From positions 1 through 54,194 of the IMG/VR virus record IMGVR_UViG_3300005470_000003: a stretch of DNA of 54,194 nt; one strand, given 5' to 3'. Shown here piece after piece: positions 15,155-46,028 of this stretch. A model generated the notes under the pieces. The model ran no database searches, was not told where the DNA came from, and worked only from the letters and a program-made list of their open reading frames with translations. A program made the translations under genes and the position numbers. The DNA is from a virus. Each line of letters opens with the position of its first letter. Position 1 is the stretch's first letter.

Positions 15155-15262
15155 TTTATAACATAATTATAAAAATCTTTAGATAAGTTATGAGAAATTG
15201 ACAAGAAAACCTAGTGGGCTCGCCATGAGGATGAATTGGCAAAATAATTTAAAAAATACTTA

Positions 15263-18576: not shown

Positions 18577-18624
18577 ATTGAAGGTATTTTTTTCCTACAA
18601 TTTTTGCGGGCCGATTCCCTCCCT
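18577..18624 (+). repeat. 48-bp repeat, copy 1
   Basis: Matches 32595-32642 with one base different. It holds an A/T-rich left part and GCGGGCCGATTCCCTCCCT on the right. The second copy begins 6 bp after the stop of the first IscB gene, so this may be a solo right end of a lost IscB-type element, or an unrelated regulatory sequence. Confidence 0.8.
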
Positions 18625-28987: not shown

Positions 28988-29275
28988 ATGAGAACAACAA
29001 ATTGGATGAACCGTTTGCAGGGTTTGAACGAATCTTATTATCGTCAGGATAGTGAAGTCGATGAAAAATCTATAAATATAATTGATGAATCAGTTAAATC
29101 AATTGATATAATTAAAGAATTGATAGATACTTCTTGGGGCGGGGATAATGAATCGCAAGGGAAAGCAGTTCAATTGTTAAAAGGCTTAGCCTTTTCTGAT
29201 GAGGAGTCATCAAATAAATTTATGTCAGCTCTTGATAAATTTACGTCTGAACTGAATGCCGACGATTTTGTTTAG
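28988..29275 (+). CDS. small acidic protein, possible tag variant (95 aa)
   Basis: ATG 28988 after AATGGAG. The beginning MRTTNWMNRLQGLNES is not a classic tag but ends with the L-x-E seen in the tags. The rest is helical and acidic. Its stop codon TAG forms part of the GTCGATAACCCC repeat. Confidence 0.5.
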   Translation: MRTTNWMNRLQGLNESYYRQDSEVDEKSINIIDESVKSIDIIKELIDTSWGGDNESQGKAVQLLKGLAFSDEESSNKFMSALDKFTSELNADDFV

Positions 29276-29300
29276 TCGATAACCCCATACCTAAGGGTAA
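29275..29300 (+). repeat. GTCGATAACCCC repeat, copy A
   Basis: Reads GTCGATAACCCCATACC then TAAGGGTA. Four other copies occur (31117, 34440 inverted, 45002 shortened, 49942). Here the AAGGGT lies 9 bases before ATG 29306 and could act as the ribosome site. Confidence 0.75.
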
Positions 29301-29305
29301 TAATT

Positions 29306-31071: not shown

Positions 31072-31152
31072 ATGACAAGAGCGAATGAAATCTTGAATAA
31101 AATCGATTTTAATCACGTCGATAACCCCATACCCAAGGGTAGGAATTTTTAA
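31072..31152 (+). CDS. tag-only micro-ORF (26 aa)
   Basis: Starts with the tag MTRANEILNKIDF, then reads into the GTCGATAACCCC repeat, ending NHVDNPIPKGRNF. Probably the 5' end of a tagged gene whose remainder was replaced by the repeat and the IscB element next to it. Confidence 0.4.
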   Translation: MTRANEILNKIDFNHVDNPIPKGRNF

Positions 31153-31170
31153 TAATTCTAGTTATCGACC
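31117..31170 (+). repeat. GTCGATAACCCC repeat, copy B, with inverted end
   Basis: GTCGATAACCCCATACC at 31117-31133 continues with CAAGGGTAGG. About 35 bases on, GTTATCGAC (31161-31169) is the reverse complement of its first nine bases, so this copy can form a hairpin. It lies at the left of the first IscB RNA. An inverted copy (C) is at 34440-34456. Confidence 0.75.
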
Positions 31171-31204
31171 AGATTAAGAAAGTTATTTTTTTTTAACTTT
31201 CTAC

Positions 31205-31370
31205 GTGTATTTAGTTATGATACCTACAAATGCGTGCCAGTTTGTAGCCCTATCGTTAAGCATCATGAAAACATGGTTGGGGACATGGTGAAGGTGTTTA
31301 GCATGACAAGCTTTATACACATTATCGAGGCAAACATTACAGCCGAAAGGCTAGAAGGAGTTTTAAAACC
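31205..31370 (+). ncRNA. HEARO/omega-RNA-like RNA of IscB 1
   Basis: The 165 bp before the IscB frame contain a 7-bp stem CTACAAA/TTTGTAG (31224-31230 with 31241-31247), a GC-containing core (ATGGTTGGGGACATGG) and a final hairpin AGCC-GAAA-GGCT (31341-31352) 18 bases from the start codon. Position and ending match the RNAs known upstream of IscB (HEARO RNA, omega RNA). The guide would be the ~16-20 bases at the 5' end. Exact ends cannot be set by eye. Confidence 0.7.
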
Positions 31371-31445
31371 ATGAACAATCATGTGTTTGTGTTGGATACA
31401 AATAAAAAGTCATAATATCCATTTACAATTATTTTAAAAATTGCT

Positions 31446-32588
31446 ATGCCAGAAGCTGTAGTAAAAGCATTAATTACTAAAATTGATCCAGGTAGTAAAT
31501 ATACCGGTATAGTACTTGTAGATAATAATGATCGTGTATTGTTTGCTGCTGAAATAGAGCATAGAGGATTATTCATTAAAAATAAATTGGATAGCCGTAG
31601 AGTTCTTAGAAGGGGTAGAAGAGGTAGAAATACCAGATATAGACAACCAAGGTTTTTAAATAGGACAAGACCTGATGGTTGGCTACCTCCAAGTTTACAA
31701 CATAGACTTCTAACAACTATGACATGGATAGATAAGTTTAGAAGGTATGCTGAAATCTCAAAGTTAGCTGTAGAACGTGTAAAATTTGATATGCAAAAAA
31801 TGCAAAATCCAGGAATTTCTGGTGTTGAATATCAACAAGGAACCTTAGCCGGTTATGAAATGCGTGAATATTTGCTTGAAAAATGGAATCGTACATGCGC
31901 ATATTGTGGTAAACAAGATATTCCATTAGAGATAGAACATATTCATCCAAAATCGAAAGGAGGTTCTAACAGAATTAGTAATTTGACATTGGCATGCCGT
32001 TCATGTAATGAGAAAAAAGGTAATATGTTAATTGAAGAATTCCTTAAAAATAAACCTGATGTTTTGAAGATAATTTTAGCACAAGCAAAGGCACCGTTGA
32101 AAGATGCCGCTGCTGTAAATGCTACTAGAAATATGTTATTTAAAAAATTATTGAATACTGGATTATTAGTGGAAACTGGTACAGGTGCACAGACAAAATT
32201 TAATCGCATTGGGTTAAAATTACCGAAAGAACATTGGATTGATGCAGCATGTGTTGGAGATTCTGGATGTAATGTTAAGGTTGATTCAAATTTAAAGCCA
32301 TTGAAGATTAAAGCAACTGGACACGGAAATAGAAGGATGTGTAGTACTAATAAATACGGATTTCCTATTCAACATAGGACAAATAAAAAGTTTCATTTCG
32401 GTTTTCAAACAGGAGATATAGTCAAAGCTGTAGTAACAAAAGGAAAAAATATAGGGATACATATTGGCAAGGTTATGTGTCGTGCCAAAGGTAATTTTGA
32501 TGTTCAAACATTAAAAGGTAAAATAGGTGCTTCTTATAAAAATTGTAGTATTTTGAGTAGAAAGGATGGGTATATCTATAACACCTAA
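31446..32588 (+). CDS. iscB: IscB RNA-guided nuclease, PLMP domain disrupted (380 aa)
   Basis: RuvC-I is KIDPGSKYTG (D14), a basic bridge helix RRVLRRGRRGRNTRYRQ follows, RuvC-II has LAVERVKFD (E110), and the HNH domain lies between CAYC (151-154) and CRSC, with H165. RuvC-III is HWIDAAC (H263, D266). All catalytic residues are present. The normal start would be ATG 31371 (MNNHVFVLDTNKKS), but TAA at 31413 stops it. The PLMP segment of about 25 residues is deleted, and the same frame resumes with YPFTII. ATG 31446 has no ribosome site, so expression is doubtful. Confidence 0.85.
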   Translation: MPEAVVKALITKIDPGSKYTGIVLVDNNDRVLFAAEIEHRGLFIKNKLDSRRVLRRGRRGRNTRYRQPRFLNRTRPDGWLPPSLQHRLLTTMTWIDKFRRYAEISKLAVERVKFDMQKMQNPGISGVEYQQGTLAGYEMREYLLEKWNRTCAYCGKQDIPLEIEHIHPKSKGGSNRISNLTLACRSCNEKKGNMLIEEFLKNKPDVLKIILAQAKAPLKDAAAVNATRNMLFKKLLNTGLLVETGTGAQTKFNRIGLKLPKEHWIDAACVGDSGCNVKVDSNLKPLKIKATGHGNRRMCSTNKYGFPIQHRTNKKFHFGFQTGDIVKAVVTKGKNIGIHIGKVMCRAKGNFDVQTLKGKIGASYKNCSILSRKDGYIYNT

Positions 32589-32594
32589 TTAGAG

Positions 32595-32642
32595 ATTGAA
32601 GGTATTTTTTTCCTATAATTTTTGCGGGCCGATTCCCTCCCT
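32595..32642 (+). repeat. 48-bp repeat, copy 2
   Basis: Differs from 18577-18624 at one base (CCTATAA for CCTACAA). Its place 6 bp after the IscB stop suggests the right end of the IscB element. Confidence 0.8.
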
Positions 32643-32665: not shown

Positions 32666-32902
32666 ATGGCTATTTTAACATCTGATAATCCTATGGGCAA
32701 AAAATCATCACCAGAAGAAAACAATAAAGATATAGCAGAAAGGATGGGCAGTAAGGATCATATCATATCCGCTGGATTTGTTAAATTTAATTCTATTGGA
32801 GATAAAGTAAAAGCAAGTTGTTATGGACAATCTACTTCTTTAGGTAAGTTCAGTCATCCTATGGATTCTGATTGGTTAACCATTTATATGGATAACTTTT
32901 AA
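32666..32902 (+). CDS. hypothetical protein, copy A of tandem pair (78 aa)
   Basis: GAAAAGGT precedes ATG 32666. The C-terminal part (GFVKFNSIGDKVKASCYGQSTSLG) is repeated in a broken second copy at 33235. No family recognised. It could also be the 3' end of a gene cut by the IscB element. Confidence 0.5.
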   Translation: MAILTSDNPMGKKSSPEENNKDIAERMGSKDHIISAGFVKFNSIGDKVKASCYGQSTSLGKFSHPMDSDWLTIYMDNF

Positions 32903-33234: not shown

Positions 33235-33474
33235 ATGATAGATAACACAGGACCAATGGGTAGTACAGAAGGAATTATAATTTTTCCAGTATGAGAAAAT
33301 CATAAGGATGTTGTTAAGAAGTTAGGCAGTAAGGAACATGTAGTATCAGTTGGATTTGTAAAATTCAGTTCTGTTGATGGAGAGATAAAACCAAGATGTT
33401 ATGGGCAATTCACTTCTTTAGGAATAGCTAGTCAGCCCAAAGATTCTGATTGGTTAATTAATTACATCAAATAA
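33235..33474 (+). pseudogene. broken copy B of the 32666 gene
   Basis: In one frame MIDNTGPMGSTEGIIIFPV ends at TGA 33292-33294, and the same frame goes on as ENHKDVVKKLGSKEHVVSVG ... CYGQFTSLG ... DSDWL, matching the gene at 32666. TGA is a normal stop elsewhere in the window, so I take this as a nonsense mutation and not recoding. Confidence 0.65.
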
Positions 33475-34439: not shown

Positions 34440-34456
34440 GGTATGGGGTTATCGAC
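34440..34456 (-). repeat. GTCGATAACCCC repeat, copy C (inverted)
   Basis: GGTATGGGGTTATCGAC is the exact reverse complement of the first 17 bases of copies A and B. With copy B it brackets a 3.3-kb segment containing the first IscB gene. Confidence 0.8.
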
Positions 34457-42703: not shown

Positions 42704-42727
42704 TTTTGTTTATTTTTTTGGTGTAAT

Positions 42728-43405
42728 ATGACTATTGCAAGAGATATTTTAAGAATCATAGAAGATAGATGGGGTACCAATTTTTCAGGTGACGACACTG
42801 GAAATTGGGAATCAAAATTAATATTATCAAACGATTGGACAATGACTTGTGGACTTTCATTAAAAAATGATAGGAAAAATTATTCAGTTGAAGGTGCAAC
42901 AGAGGATCATCCTGGTTTTAGAAAAGCTCTTGATGAAATTGTTAAAAAATATCCATATATAAAAGATTATCTTATATCTTTTGATGGGCCATATATTAAA
43001 ATATCTGATGTATTAAAGCGTAAGAAATTTTCTTGGAAAGATATTACACTGTATCATGGAACGGCCTCAGCCTTTTTGGATTCTATAAAAAAGAATGGGT
43101 TGAGTCCAAGGTCTGTTACTAATCAAAATGCCGGGTATGGTTCATTTGTTGGGGCTAAAAGTGGTAATAAAGATGCCATATATCTCACAACACAAATTGG
43201 AATGGCTAAATTTGCTGGTTTAGAAGTTTCAAGTAAAACAAATTCAGATAGGATAATATTATCGGTAAATGGAAAAGATCTCAATCCAAAGCTTTTGATT
43301 CCAGATGAAGATAGTAGAAAACAAACACCAGAAGATAGTTTATTTAAAATTGGATCGGTTGGGTATCTAGGGATTATTCCGTTTAGTCAGTTGTCAAGGT
43401 CTTAA
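42728..43405 (+). CDS. tagged ADP-ribosyltransferase-like protein (225 aa)
   Basis: The tag MTIARDILRIIEDRW comes first, then about 85 residues without assignment, then ITLYHGTASAFLDSIKKNGLSPR, YGSFVGAKSGNKDAIYLTT and RIILSVNGKDLNP: the H, Y and strand-3 segments of an ART/Tpt1-like fold. The end (SVGYLGIIPFSQL) is typical of the last strand. A fragment of the same 5' end recurs at 45053. Confidence 0.72.
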   Translation: MTIARDILRIIEDRWGTNFSGDDTGNWESKLILSNDWTMTCGLSLKNDRKNYSVEGATEDHPGFRKALDEIVKKYPYIKDYLISFDGPYIKISDVLKRKKFSWKDITLYHGTASAFLDSIKKNGLSPRSVTNQNAGYGSFVGAKSGNKDAIYLTTQIGMAKFAGLEVSSKTNSDRIILSVNGKDLNPKLLIPDEDSRKQTPEDSLFKIGSVGYLGIIPFSQLSRS

Positions 43406-43409
43406 TACC

Positions 43410-43622
43410 TTGGTTTGTTAGGTGACTAACAACGATTAAAAGAGCTGATTAGTCTAAGTCTTAATTGACTACGTTATCTTAGAATATATAGGTACTTCAG
43501 AATGCCTCCCAAGTTCTGAACACTACGGATGATAGTTAAACAGAGTTCAAAGACTCGGTGCTATTATTAAAAACCTAAGAATAACATTGACGATGGGAAT
43601 CAACTCCGAAAGGAGATTTATA
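43410..43622 (+). ncRNA. HEARO/omega-RNA-like RNA of IscB 2
   Basis: The 210 bp before the IscB start hold a GTTAG-GTGA-CTAAC hairpin (43417-43430), a core with CCTCCCAAGTTCTGAAC ... AGAGTTCAAAGACTCGG pairing, and the final hairpin CTCC-GAAA-GGAG (43604-43615) 7 bases before ATG 43623. The final stem differs in sequence from that of the first IscB RNA (AGCC/GGCT) while the GAAA loop is kept. The hairpin overlaps the ribosome site. Confidence 0.75.
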
Positions 43623-44813
43623 ATGAATCCAAAAGTATTTGTTTTGGCAGAAGATGGGACACCATTGATGCCTACAACTGCATCAAGGGCTAGACGAAAA
43701 TTGAGGGATGGTCAAGCTAAAGTTGTGAAAAGAGAACCTTTCACAATTCAATTGCTTTACAAATCAGGAATGGAGATTCAACCAATTAAGTTGGGGATTG
43801 ATTCGGGCTATCAAAATATAGGTTTTTCCGCAACAACAGAAAAAGATGAATTAATATCCGGTGAAGTTAAGTTGGATAATGGAATGTCAAAGAGAATCCA
43901 AGACAAAGCCATATATCGTAGGAATCGCAGGAATAGACTTAGATACAGACAATCAAGATTTGATAATAGAACACAAAAAGAAAATTGGTTGCCACCATCA
44001 ATTCAAAGAAGATTTGATACTAATATTAGTCTTATTAACAAATTGAGATCAATACTTCCTATTTCTGAGATTATTGTTGAGGCAGGTAGTTTTGATATTC
44101 AAAAGTTACAAAATCCTGAAATTGAAAGTAAACAATATCAACAAGGTGAAATGTATGGTTATGCAAATCTAAAATCTTATCTTTTGACAAGAGAAAAAAG
44201 TTTATGTCAATTGTGTGGTAAAGTTCACAAAAAGTGGCAGATGCATCATATTATTCCAAGGTCTAAAGGTGGAACAAATAGACCAAAGAATTTTGCATTG
44301 TTGGGCGATAAATGTCATGATAAATTGCATAAACAAAATTTATATCACAAATTAAAAAAGAATAGACAATTTAAAGGATCTACTTTCATGTCTATCATTA
44401 GAAAGAGATTCTATGATTTCGGATATAACGTAGTTTATGGTTATCAGACCTTTGTGGATCGCAATAAATTGAGTTTATCTAAGAGTCATGCAAATGATGC
44501 CTTTGTAATATCAGGTGGTATAAATCAAAATAGAGTAAATATGTTCATAGTAACTCAAAAAAGAAAAAATAATAGATGTCTGCAAATTAATAGAAAGTCG
44601 GGAATTTTGATTCGTAGAAAGAGATATAGTATTCGACCAAAAGATTTAGTTAAATATTCAGGTAAGATGTTTGAAGTGATAGGGATTATTAGTAGGGGAT
44701 TAAGTGTTGGTCTGACGGATGGAATTAAAAAGATTTATAAATCACCATCAAAATTGGATGATTGGATCTTTCATAGAAAGACATTGATTTGGAGAAACTG
44801 TATAGGTCAATAA
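43623..44813 (+). CDS. iscB: IscB RNA-guided nuclease, intact (396 aa)
   Basis: An ancestor-type relative of Cas9. The PLMP domain is present (residues 1-50, with T-PLMP-T at 13-18). RuvC-I is KLGIDSG (D60), the bridge helix YRRNRRNRLRYRQSRF, RuvC-II IIVEAGSFD (E153), the HNH domain runs from CQLC (195-198) through MHHIIPRSKGG (H208-H209), and RuvC-III is SHANDA (H289, D292). All catalytic residues are kept. I start at ATG 43623 (not 43587) because the RNA hairpin and GGAG lie just upstream. No TnpA transposase is beside it. Confidence 0.92.
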   Translation: MNPKVFVLAEDGTPLMPTTASRARRKLRDGQAKVVKREPFTIQLLYKSGMEIQPIKLGIDSGYQNIGFSATTEKDELISGEVKLDNGMSKRIQDKAIYRRNRRNRLRYRQSRFDNRTQKENWLPPSIQRRFDTNISLINKLRSILPISEIIVEAGSFDIQKLQNPEIESKQYQQGEMYGYANLKSYLLTREKSLCQLCGKVHKKWQMHHIIPRSKGGTNRPKNFALLGDKCHDKLHKQNLYHKLKKNRQFKGSTFMSIIRKRFYDFGYNVVYGYQTFVDRNKLSLSKSHANDAFVISGGINQNRVNMFIVTQKRKNNRCLQINRKSGILIRRKRYSIRPKDLVKYSGKMFEVIGIISRGLSVGLTDGIKKIYKSPSKLDDWIFHRKTLIWRNCIGQ

Positions 44814-44815
44814 TA

Positions 44816-45013
44816 ATGATAGGTGAGAAGGCAACTATTTGTTTATGTCCAAAATGTAATTGTAAACACAAATATAAGATTTATTGGGTTGGCAACGGCA
44901 TTCCTCGTGTCTATTGTAAAATTTGTAGGGCAATAATTTCAAGAAGAATATTTATGGAATCATATAAAGTCAGCAACGGTTCAAATTCATCACAACGTTT
45001 AGTCGATACCTAA
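44816..45013 (+). CDS. zinc-ribbon protein next to IscB 2 (65 aa)
   Basis: Starts 2 bp after the IscB stop. CLCPKCNC and YCKIC give two metal knuckles separated by a basic WVGNGIPR loop. The tight spacing suggests it is expressed with IscB. Its last codons lie in a shortened GTCGAT repeat. Confidence 0.6.
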   Translation: MIGEKATICLCPKCNCKHKYKIYWVGNGIPRVYCKICRAIISRRIFMESYKVSNGSNSSQRLVDT

Positions 45014-45038
45014 TGGTATGAATTTTTAATAATTTAGA
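45002..45038 (+). repeat. GTCGAT repeat, copy E (shortened)
   Basis: Reads GTCGAT-ACCTAATGGTATG then AATTTTTAATAATT. It lacks the AACCCCAT of the other copies but shares the AATTTTTAATAATT tail with copy B, which lies beside the first IscB RNA. Copies near both IscB genes hint at a link. Confidence 0.55.
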
Positions 45039-45052
45039 ATTGGTGCCATAAT

Positions 45053-45100
45053 ATGACTATTGCAAGAGACATTTTTAAAAATTATAGAAGATGGAGGTAA
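45053..45100 (+). pseudogene. 5' fragment of the 42728 gene
   Basis: MTIARDIFKNYRRWR, then stop. At the DNA level it matches the first ~45 bases of the tagged gene at 42728 with a one-base shift. A leftover of tag duplication. Confidence 0.55.
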
Positions 45101-45105
45101 TTATT

Positions 45106-46028
45106 ATGAGTAAGGCTAGTATGATATTGGAAATTCTTGAACCAAAAGATCCTAGTAAAATTTCTTATTCTCTAATCTTGATGAAAAGTCAGAATTGATT
45201 TTGAAGACTTTTTATCATAAAAATCCTGAAAAATATAAGTTTAATCTTTTTCATATATATGATCTCGATTTAAGAGAATCTTTAGCAAAAATTGTTGGAT
45301 TGGATATTGACTGGGATTATGATCAACATGAAGTTAATAAATCTCTTACTTTTTTTGCTAATAAATTTTATGAATTTTCAGAATCTAATGAATATTTAAT
45401 CAGCAGGGGGGTTACTGAAGATCAAATTAATAGATTTAAGTTAGGCAATGTTTCGGGATTTTTCAATCATTTGGAAAAAAATGTTGATCTTTATGATTTT
45501 AATGAAGTCTCAAAAAGTTTAATGAGATTTTATATATGTTCCATGCAAGAAGTATCCAGCCTCTATGGTCCTACTGAAATGGTTACTATTCCAAATTTTA
45601 ATGTTGATTGTTTAGGAATAGTAGGTAGAGTTGTTGGTTATACTGATAAATATAAGATAGATAGGAACATTCATAAATTTTCGAATACCAATCAACTGAC
45701 TTATCTTTTAGGGGAAGATGTTCTTGATGATTATGATTGGGTTTATCTTGTAGAAGGGGTATTTGATCTTCTTGCTATGGATAGAATTGGAATAAAGAAT
45801 GTAGTTACAGCTTCTGCAACATCACTTTCTAATATGCATGTGAAAAAATTAATGGGAAAAGGGGTAATTGCTATATTTGATAATGATTTAGGCGGATACC
45901 ATGGAATTGAAAGATTAAAAAATCAGGATATTGATTTAATTGATGGTGTTCAAATTGATTTTGCTAAAGATATAGACGAGGCTGATCCAAATCAATTATA
46001 TAATTGGGTTACAAGCATGTTTCTTTAA
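45106..46028 (+). pseudogene. tagged TOPRIM (DnaG-like) gene, frameshifted
   Basis: From ATG 45106 (TGGAGGT upstream) the frame gives the tag MSKASMILEILEPKDPSK and ends at 45196-45198. The frame one base earlier is open from 45159 and runs to 46028: a domain with VYLVEGVFDLLAMDRIG (TOPRIM Glu), VVTASATSLS and VIAIFDNDLGGYHG (TOPRIM Asp-x-Asp), as in DnaG-type primases. A single-base change near 45160-45173 would join them. If not frameshifted, translation would need a TTG start at 45195. Confidence 0.65.

What the first reader, a model, noticed from the sequence alone, without database searches (positions are those of the whole stretch)
43410..45013. Complete phage-borne IscB with its omega RNA and a partner zinc ribbon
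Seen: PLMP, RuvC I-III and HNH residues all kept, an upstream RNA with a CTCC-GAAA-GGAG hairpin that overlaps the ribosome site, and a zinc-ribbon gene 2 bp downstream. No TnpA is present. Known: IscB is an RNA-guided DNA nuclease of IS200/605-type elements. Without a transposase it may act as a homing nuclease or a weapon against competing phages. The hairpin over the ribosome site suggests IscB synthesis competes with RNA folding.
Basis: partly seen in the sequence, partly recalled or inferred. Interest (0 to 1): 0.78.

Follow-up and report, generated by a model that had tools for sequence, protein, structure and literature searches.

The report
Phage-borne IscB nuclease with guide RNA
A phage genome fragment carries an apparently intact IscB gene, a small RNA-guided DNA cutter related to Cas9, with its guide RNA placed to aim at the phage's own insertion site; this is a new member of a known family, most likely kept as a selfish homing gene, and the zinc-ribbon gene beside it looks like a neighbour rather than a partner.

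Summary
The window holds a full HEARO/omega RNA (43386-43604, 109.9 bits) followed by a 396-aa IscB (43623-44813; NCBIfam guided_IscB 318 bits, cut-off 175). All catalytic RuvC and HNH residues are kept, but one HNH zinc cysteine is glycine at position 228, the only such case among 140 aligned IscBs. The guide should be the 16 nt before the RNA (43370-43385), which encode the last residues of an ADP-ribosyltransferase-like phage gene. No TnpA was found in the window, and the right end (RE) that most relatives carry is not detectable. The zinc ribbon is not a conserved partner: no relative lies beside about 155 IscBs. The hairpin over the ribosome site is real, and it recurs in 13 of 39 independent relatives against 3.5 expected, so it appears to be a family trait. 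Best reading: a TnpA-less IscB element retained by RNA-guided homing at one phage site. Phage-borne, TnpA-less IscBs are already published (PMC9755519). I found no empty site or target. The 54-kb fragment also holds a second, damaged IscB element and scattered element ends.

The parts
42728..43405 (+). ADP-ribosyltransferase-like gene with capsid-targeting-like N-terminus; the element is inserted at its 3' end and supplies its last codons and stop
   Evidence: ORF; PHROG 13493 covers residues 98-221 of 225; weak NCBIfam match to RNA 2'-phosphotransferase
43370..43385 (+). predicted guide: GGGATTATTCCGTTTA, the 16 nt of left flank directly before the omega RNA
   Evidence: left end (LE) boundary from multi-copy relatives starts at GTCAA; 16-nt guide length is established knowledge of IscB
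43386..43604 (+). HEARO / omega RNA, also the left end of the element
   Evidence: Rfam RF02033 model 1-211/211, 109.9 bits; fold z -2.9 for 43370-43650
43604..43615 (+). terminal hairpin CTCC-GAAA-GGAG covering the Shine-Dalgarno of IscB
   Evidence: sequence, fold, recurrence in relatives
43623..44813 (+). IscB-2, 396 aa: PLMP, RuvC I-III, HNH with C228G, short C-terminal domain
   Evidence: Pfam RRXRR 2e-59 and HNH; NCBIfam guided_IscB; PDB OgeuIscB 9e-40; AF2 model pLDDT 79, Foldseek top hit 8csz 1.3e-27
44816..45013 (+). zinc-ribbon ORF, 65 aa (CPKC, CKIC); probably a flanking phage gene, not part of the IscB system
   Evidence: no family match; none beside other IscBs; single-sequence model shows strands 8-34 and a disordered C-terminus
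45002..45034 (+). solo left-end-like sequence related to the left end of element 1
   Evidence: 45006-45034 is 90% identical to 31129-31157
31117..32642 (+). second IscB element (element 1): HEARO 31117-31340, IscB-1 31446-32588 with the PLMP region disrupted, right-end repeat 32595-32642
   Evidence: Rfam 110.9 bits; RRXRR matched only from profile position 49; repeat

Best explanation
This is an IscB element that has lost its detectable right transposon end and has no TnpA nearby. It persists in the phage as an RNA-guided homing gene. The leader transcript gives an omega RNA whose 5' 16 nt copy the left flank, the 3' end of an ADP-ribosyltransferase-like gene. IscB binds it and cuts phage genomes whose copy of that site is uninterrupted, next to a TAM on the right; repair from an element-bearing genome copies the element in. 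The hairpin over the Shine-Dalgarno lowers IscB translation while the leader is folded, balancing guide RNA and protein. Shown: the RNA, the protein, the left boundary, no detectable TnpA or right end, the hairpin and its recurrence. Inferred: expression, the guide's use, the TAM, cutting, homing and translational control.
For: Complete HEARO RNA and IscB above curated cut-offs. Catalytic residues conserved; predicted fold matches solved IscB-omega RNA-DNA complexes. Multi-copy relatives define the left boundary exactly at the HEARO start, so the left flank is the guide. A right-end model built from 21 relatives finds ends in most of 50 other loci searched, usually beside the IscB stop, but none near 44813. 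TnpA-like ORFs occur in only 13 of 155 IscB loci, so TnpA-less IscB is the rule, as published (PMC9755519). The insertion leaves the ADP-ribosyltransferase domain complete. SD-covering hairpins: 13 of 39 clusters against 3.5 +/- 1.75 in shuffles, 0 of 2000 shuffles reaching 13.
Against: No empty allele or related phage was found, so the guide-target relation is unproven for this element. C228G may weaken the HNH domain, leaving a nickase or a dead enzyme. A missing right end could equally mean decay; the second IscB in the same fragment is already damaged. No expression data. The right-end model may miss a divergent end.
Confidence: 0.55

Rival explanations
1. It is a decaying, passively carried IscB element. 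The right end is lost, one HNH zinc ligand is gone, and the reading frame survives only because the loss is recent.
For: C228G is unique among 140 aligned proteins; no right end detected; IscB-1 in the same fragment has lost its PLMP region and solo ends are scattered around.
Against: The 396-aa frame is open with every catalytic residue kept, and the RNA scores far above its gathering threshold.
Confidence: 0.22
2. IscB and the zinc ribbon form a two-gene nuclease module: the zinc ribbon, translationally coupled to IscB, supplies DNA or RNA binding that the short IscB C-terminus lacks.
For: Only 2 nt separate the two genes; the ORF has two CxxC motifs and a predicted strand-rich core. L041 also has a small CxxC ORF overlapping its IscB stop.
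Against: No homologue of this zinc ribbon beside any of about 155 IscBs or in IMG/VR or phage records. Elements usually end 0-100 nt from the IscB stop, and the following ATG starts an ORF of 40 aa or more in 24 of 44 cases against 28% for control ATGs. The short C-terminus is shared by relatives that lack such a gene.
Confidence: 0.1
3. It is an ordinary transposable IscB element moved in trans by a TnpA elsewhere in the phage or host, with a right end too divergent to recognise.
For: Only a 54-kb fragment is available; most relatives carry right ends but no adjacent TnpA, so trans mobilisation must occur in the family.
Against: The right-end model detects ends in most relatives but not here; no second copy of this element in the window.
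Confidence: 0.13

Closest known systems
OgeuIscB and other characterised IscB-omega RNA nucleases (PDB 7xht, 8csz, 9k30)
   Same: PLMP, split RuvC, HNH, C-terminal TAM-interacting region, upstream omega RNA with 5' guide; top sequence and structure matches
   Different: About 20% identity over the fold alignment; shorter (396 aa); one HNH zinc ligand replaced by Gly; activity untested
HEARO nucleases of viral contigs (PMC9755519)
   Same: HEARO RNA plus nuclease on likely phage DNA without TnpA; that paper reports few TnpA associations and over 16% viral or prophage-derived fragments
   Different: This element has no detectable right end and abuts a zinc-ribbon gene; the paper's text does not mention a ribosome-site hairpin
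IscB elements L007/L033 (Chlamydiae) and L086/L087 (IMG/VR contigs)
   Same: Same fully supported clade; L086 is also inserted at the 3' end of a phage gene, whose stop lies in the left end
   Different: They keep a right end next to the IscB stop; L086 has His where this protein has Gly228

Membership tests
IscB (NF040563, RNA-guided endonuclease) | Score above the curated family cut-off | tested here: met
   317.6 bits, cut-off 175
IscB (NF040563, RNA-guided endonuclease) | PLMP motif and RuvC I-III catalytic residues | tested here: met
   L15-M16-P17, D60, E153, H289, D292 aligned with 139 homologues
IscB (NF040563, RNA-guided endonuclease) | HNH domain with catalytic His/Asn and zinc ligands | tested here: inconclusive
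   H209 and N223 kept, C195, C198 and C231 kept, C228 replaced by Gly
IscB (NF040563, RNA-guided endonuclease) | RNA-guided cleavage of DNA | not testable with these tools
   needs purified protein and RNA
HEARO / omega RNA (RF02033) | Covariance-model score above gathering threshold, full length | tested here: met
   109.9 bits against 83, model 1-211
IS200/IS605-type transposable element | TnpA in the element or nearby | tested here: not met
   no TnpA-like ORF in 54 kb; the record is a fragment
IS200/IS605-type transposable element | Left end with hairpins | tested here: met
   HEARO start coincides with the left boundary of multi-copy relatives
IS200/IS605-type transposable element | Right end with hairpin and TAM | tested here: not met
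   no match of the right-end model R1 near 44813, while most relatives match
Homing endonuclease gene | Cuts the allele that lacks the gene at the insertion site | tested here: inconclusive
   guide equals left flank by position, but no empty allele found

The most novel reading that the evidence does not exclude
IscB-2 is a stand-alone RNA-guided homing gene of a phage: it has shed its transposon right end, sits fixed at the 3' end of a possibly virion-packaged ADP-ribosyltransferase gene, and controls its own synthesis through an omega RNA terminal hairpin that hides the ribosome site, a control shared by much of the IscB family.
Probability: 0.3. Interest if true: 0.62.

Novelty: new member of a known kind. 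Interest (0 to 1): 0.38.

Why it matters
IscB is the likely ancestor of Cas9, and what it does for phages without a transposase is an open question. This locus gives a concrete guide and insertion site to test for RNA-guided homing in phages. The recurrent hairpin over the IscB ribosome site is a simple, testable hint that guide RNA and nuclease synthesis are coupled across the family. Otherwise the locus is one more viral HEARO element of a kind already reported.

Tried and rejected
Searched for related phages by IscB, terminase, ADP-ribosyltransferase and zinc-ribbon proteins in IMG/VR: none; no near DNA match in phage records. Guide exact search in IMG/VR gave 8 scattered hits; only 16-22 nt align and the flanks do not, so I treat them as chance. 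A joined-flank empty-site pattern gave none, nor did one for relative L086. Guide matches elsewhere in the window: none better than chance. A right end after the zinc ribbon (AATTCATC at 44984) was considered and rejected: no hairpin, and the model gives no match there. The AATTTTTAATAATT stretch at 45019 was first taken for a third HEARO; it is only a left-end fragment, and Rfam finds no third HEARO. Zinc-ribbon structure search gave no confident match.

Full report
What is there. The window is a 54-kb linear IMG/VR virus record. Its terminase is 43% identical to that of Rhizobium phage RHph_TM39 and its relatives, and no close relative exists in the phage or IMG/VR collections searched. At 43386-43604 lies a full-length HEARO RNA (RF02033, 109.9 bits, threshold 83), the RNA known as omega RNA. 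The IscB gene follows at 43623-44813 (396 aa): NCBIfam guided_IscB 318 bits against a cut-off of 175, Pfam RRXRR 2e-59, PDB OgeuIscB 9e-40. An AlphaFold model from 40 window and locus sequences (pLDDT 79) has solved IscB-omega RNA-DNA complexes as its best matches (8csz, E 1.3e-27).

Residues. In an alignment of 140 IscB proteins (139 homologues plus this one), D60, E153, H209, N223, H289 and D292 agree with at least 136 of the 139. The exception to 'all kept' is position 228, one of four HNH zinc ligands: Cys in 134, His in 4, Gly only here. In the clade-mate L086 the motif reads LLHEKCH where this protein has LLGDKCH. Whether three ligands suffice is not testable here. The short C-terminus (no block of about 45 residues before RRKRY) is shared with L006, L010, L033 and L086, so it is not a truncation. 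A quick maximum-likelihood tree puts the protein in a fully supported clade with two Chlamydiae sequences (L007, L033) and two viral contigs (L086, L087).

Element boundaries. Comparing multi-copy relatives shows the left end of this family starts at GTCAA(C/T)TACCCC-hairpin, exactly the start of the HEARO model, with unrelated sequence upstream. So the left boundary here is 43386 and the guide is the 16 nt before it, GGGATTATTCCGTTTA (guide length from established IscB work). These nt encode GIIPF near the C-terminus of the gene 42728-43405, an ADP-ribosyltransferase-like protein; its PHROG domain match is complete to residue 221 of 225, and the element provides the last codons and stop. Relatives end in a right end of the form GC(A)ATTC[AC]TCCC-hairpin-GGGTTTCC-GC, a short AT-rich stretch, then most often ATGAA, 0-100 nt from the IscB stop. 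A covariance model of this right end, built from 21 relatives, finds it in most of 50 loci searched (some of them model members), usually at the expected place, but not near 44813. No TnpA-like ORF was found in the window; only 13 of 155 IscB loci have one within 3 kb, which agrees with published work (PMC9755519). The element therefore meets the left-end test but not the right-end or TnpA tests of a transposable element.

Zinc ribbon. The 65-aa ORF starts 2 nt after the IscB stop. It has no family match, no relative next to about 155 IscBs, none in IMG/VR and no credible one in phage records. In relatives, the ATG directly after the right end starts an ORF of at least 40 aa in 24 of 44 cases, against 28% for control ATGs: these elements often sit just upstream of a gene's start codon. 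The zinc-ribbon ATG has that geometry, so it is most likely the phage's next gene.

Hairpin over the ribosome site. CTCC-GAAA-GGAG (43604-43615) covers the Shine-Dalgarno, beyond the last position of the Rfam match. Among 56 relatives with a recognisable Shine-Dalgarno, 22 have a comparable hairpin, against 5.2 +/- 2.1 when the 20 nt upstream are shuffled. After clustering similar leaders it is 13 of 39 against 3.5 +/- 1.75, with none of 2000 shuffles reaching 13. The arms vary (CTCC/GGAG, CCTA/TAGG, CTTTAAC/GTTAAAG), as expected if pairing is selected. This test was designed after seeing the window hairpin, but the window itself was not counted. A literature search for IscB with 'ribosome binding site' and 'hairpin' found no paper. 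The mechanism, folding of the omega RNA limiting IscB translation, is inference.

Mechanism. Related nucleases act as homing or gene-drive devices: the guide records the insertion site, and cutting the empty site leads to copying of the element (reviewed in PMC12477157; shown for TnpB on plasmids in PMC11870625). Applied here, a phage carrying the element would cut co-infecting relatives whose ADP-ribosyltransferase gene is uninterrupted, and repair would spread the element. No empty allele was found: the guide has 8 exact hits in IMG/VR whose flanks do not match, and a joined-flank pattern has none. The homing step is therefore the most likely but unproven. A 'weapon' against competitors would look the same at sequence level.

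Verdict. The finding is a genuine phage-borne IscB, a new member of a known kind. Its unusual points are the missing right end, the Gly228, the insertion at the 3' end of a possibly virion-packaged enzyme gene, and the recurrent ribosome-site hairpin. The partner zinc ribbon is not supported.

Noticed in passing
31117-32642: A second HEARO RNA (110.9 bits) with IscB-1, about 57% identical to viral IscBs. Its N-terminal PLMP region is disrupted: MNNHVFVLDTNKKS, a stop, then YPFTIILK in the same frame, so the listed ORF starts downstream at 31446.
   Followed up: partly
18577-18624 and 32595-32642: A 48-bp repeat (98%) that is the downstream end of element 1 also occurs alone between two genes, and both copies break at the same base (CCCTCCCT).
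   Followed up: partly
29275-29305, 34440-34456 (minus), 45002-45034: Solo copies of the first 17-41 nt of the element-1 left end. At 29275 and 45002 they sit at the 3' end of a gene and follow GTTTA, the same 5 nt that precede element 2 at 43386.
   Followed up: partly
15187-15243 (minus): A solo IscB right-end-like sequence found with the right-end model (22.2 bits, E 0.0006), with no HEARO or IscB nearby.
   Followed up: partly
17700-49600: At least 18 plus-strand ORFs of varied function share an N-terminus of the type M(S/T)xAxxIIxxLxE, against 1 of 54 minus-strand ORFs. It looks like a capsid-targeting sequence with a prohead-protease site, on ADP-ribosyltransferase-like and other cargo proteins.
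   Followed up: partly
45040-45095 and 42718-42769: The 5' end of the ADP-ribosyltransferase-like gene (start codon and capsid-targeting-like codons) is duplicated downstream of the zinc ribbon as a decayed remnant (86% over 56 bp).
   Followed up: no
45105-46028: A DnaG/Toprim-like primase gene seems to be frameshifted after its capsid-targeting-like start (MSKASMILEILEPKDP...), by mutation or assembly error.
   Followed up: no
32716-32889 and 33294-33467: Tandem paralogous genes (72-75% DNA identity) flank element 1 on the right; the second copy has an in-frame stop.
   Followed up: no
IscB relatives, 3 kb loci: The right flank of IscB elements most often begins ATGAA or ATAAA, and over half of such ATGs start an ORF, so these elements tend to insert just upstream of start codons.
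   Followed up: partly
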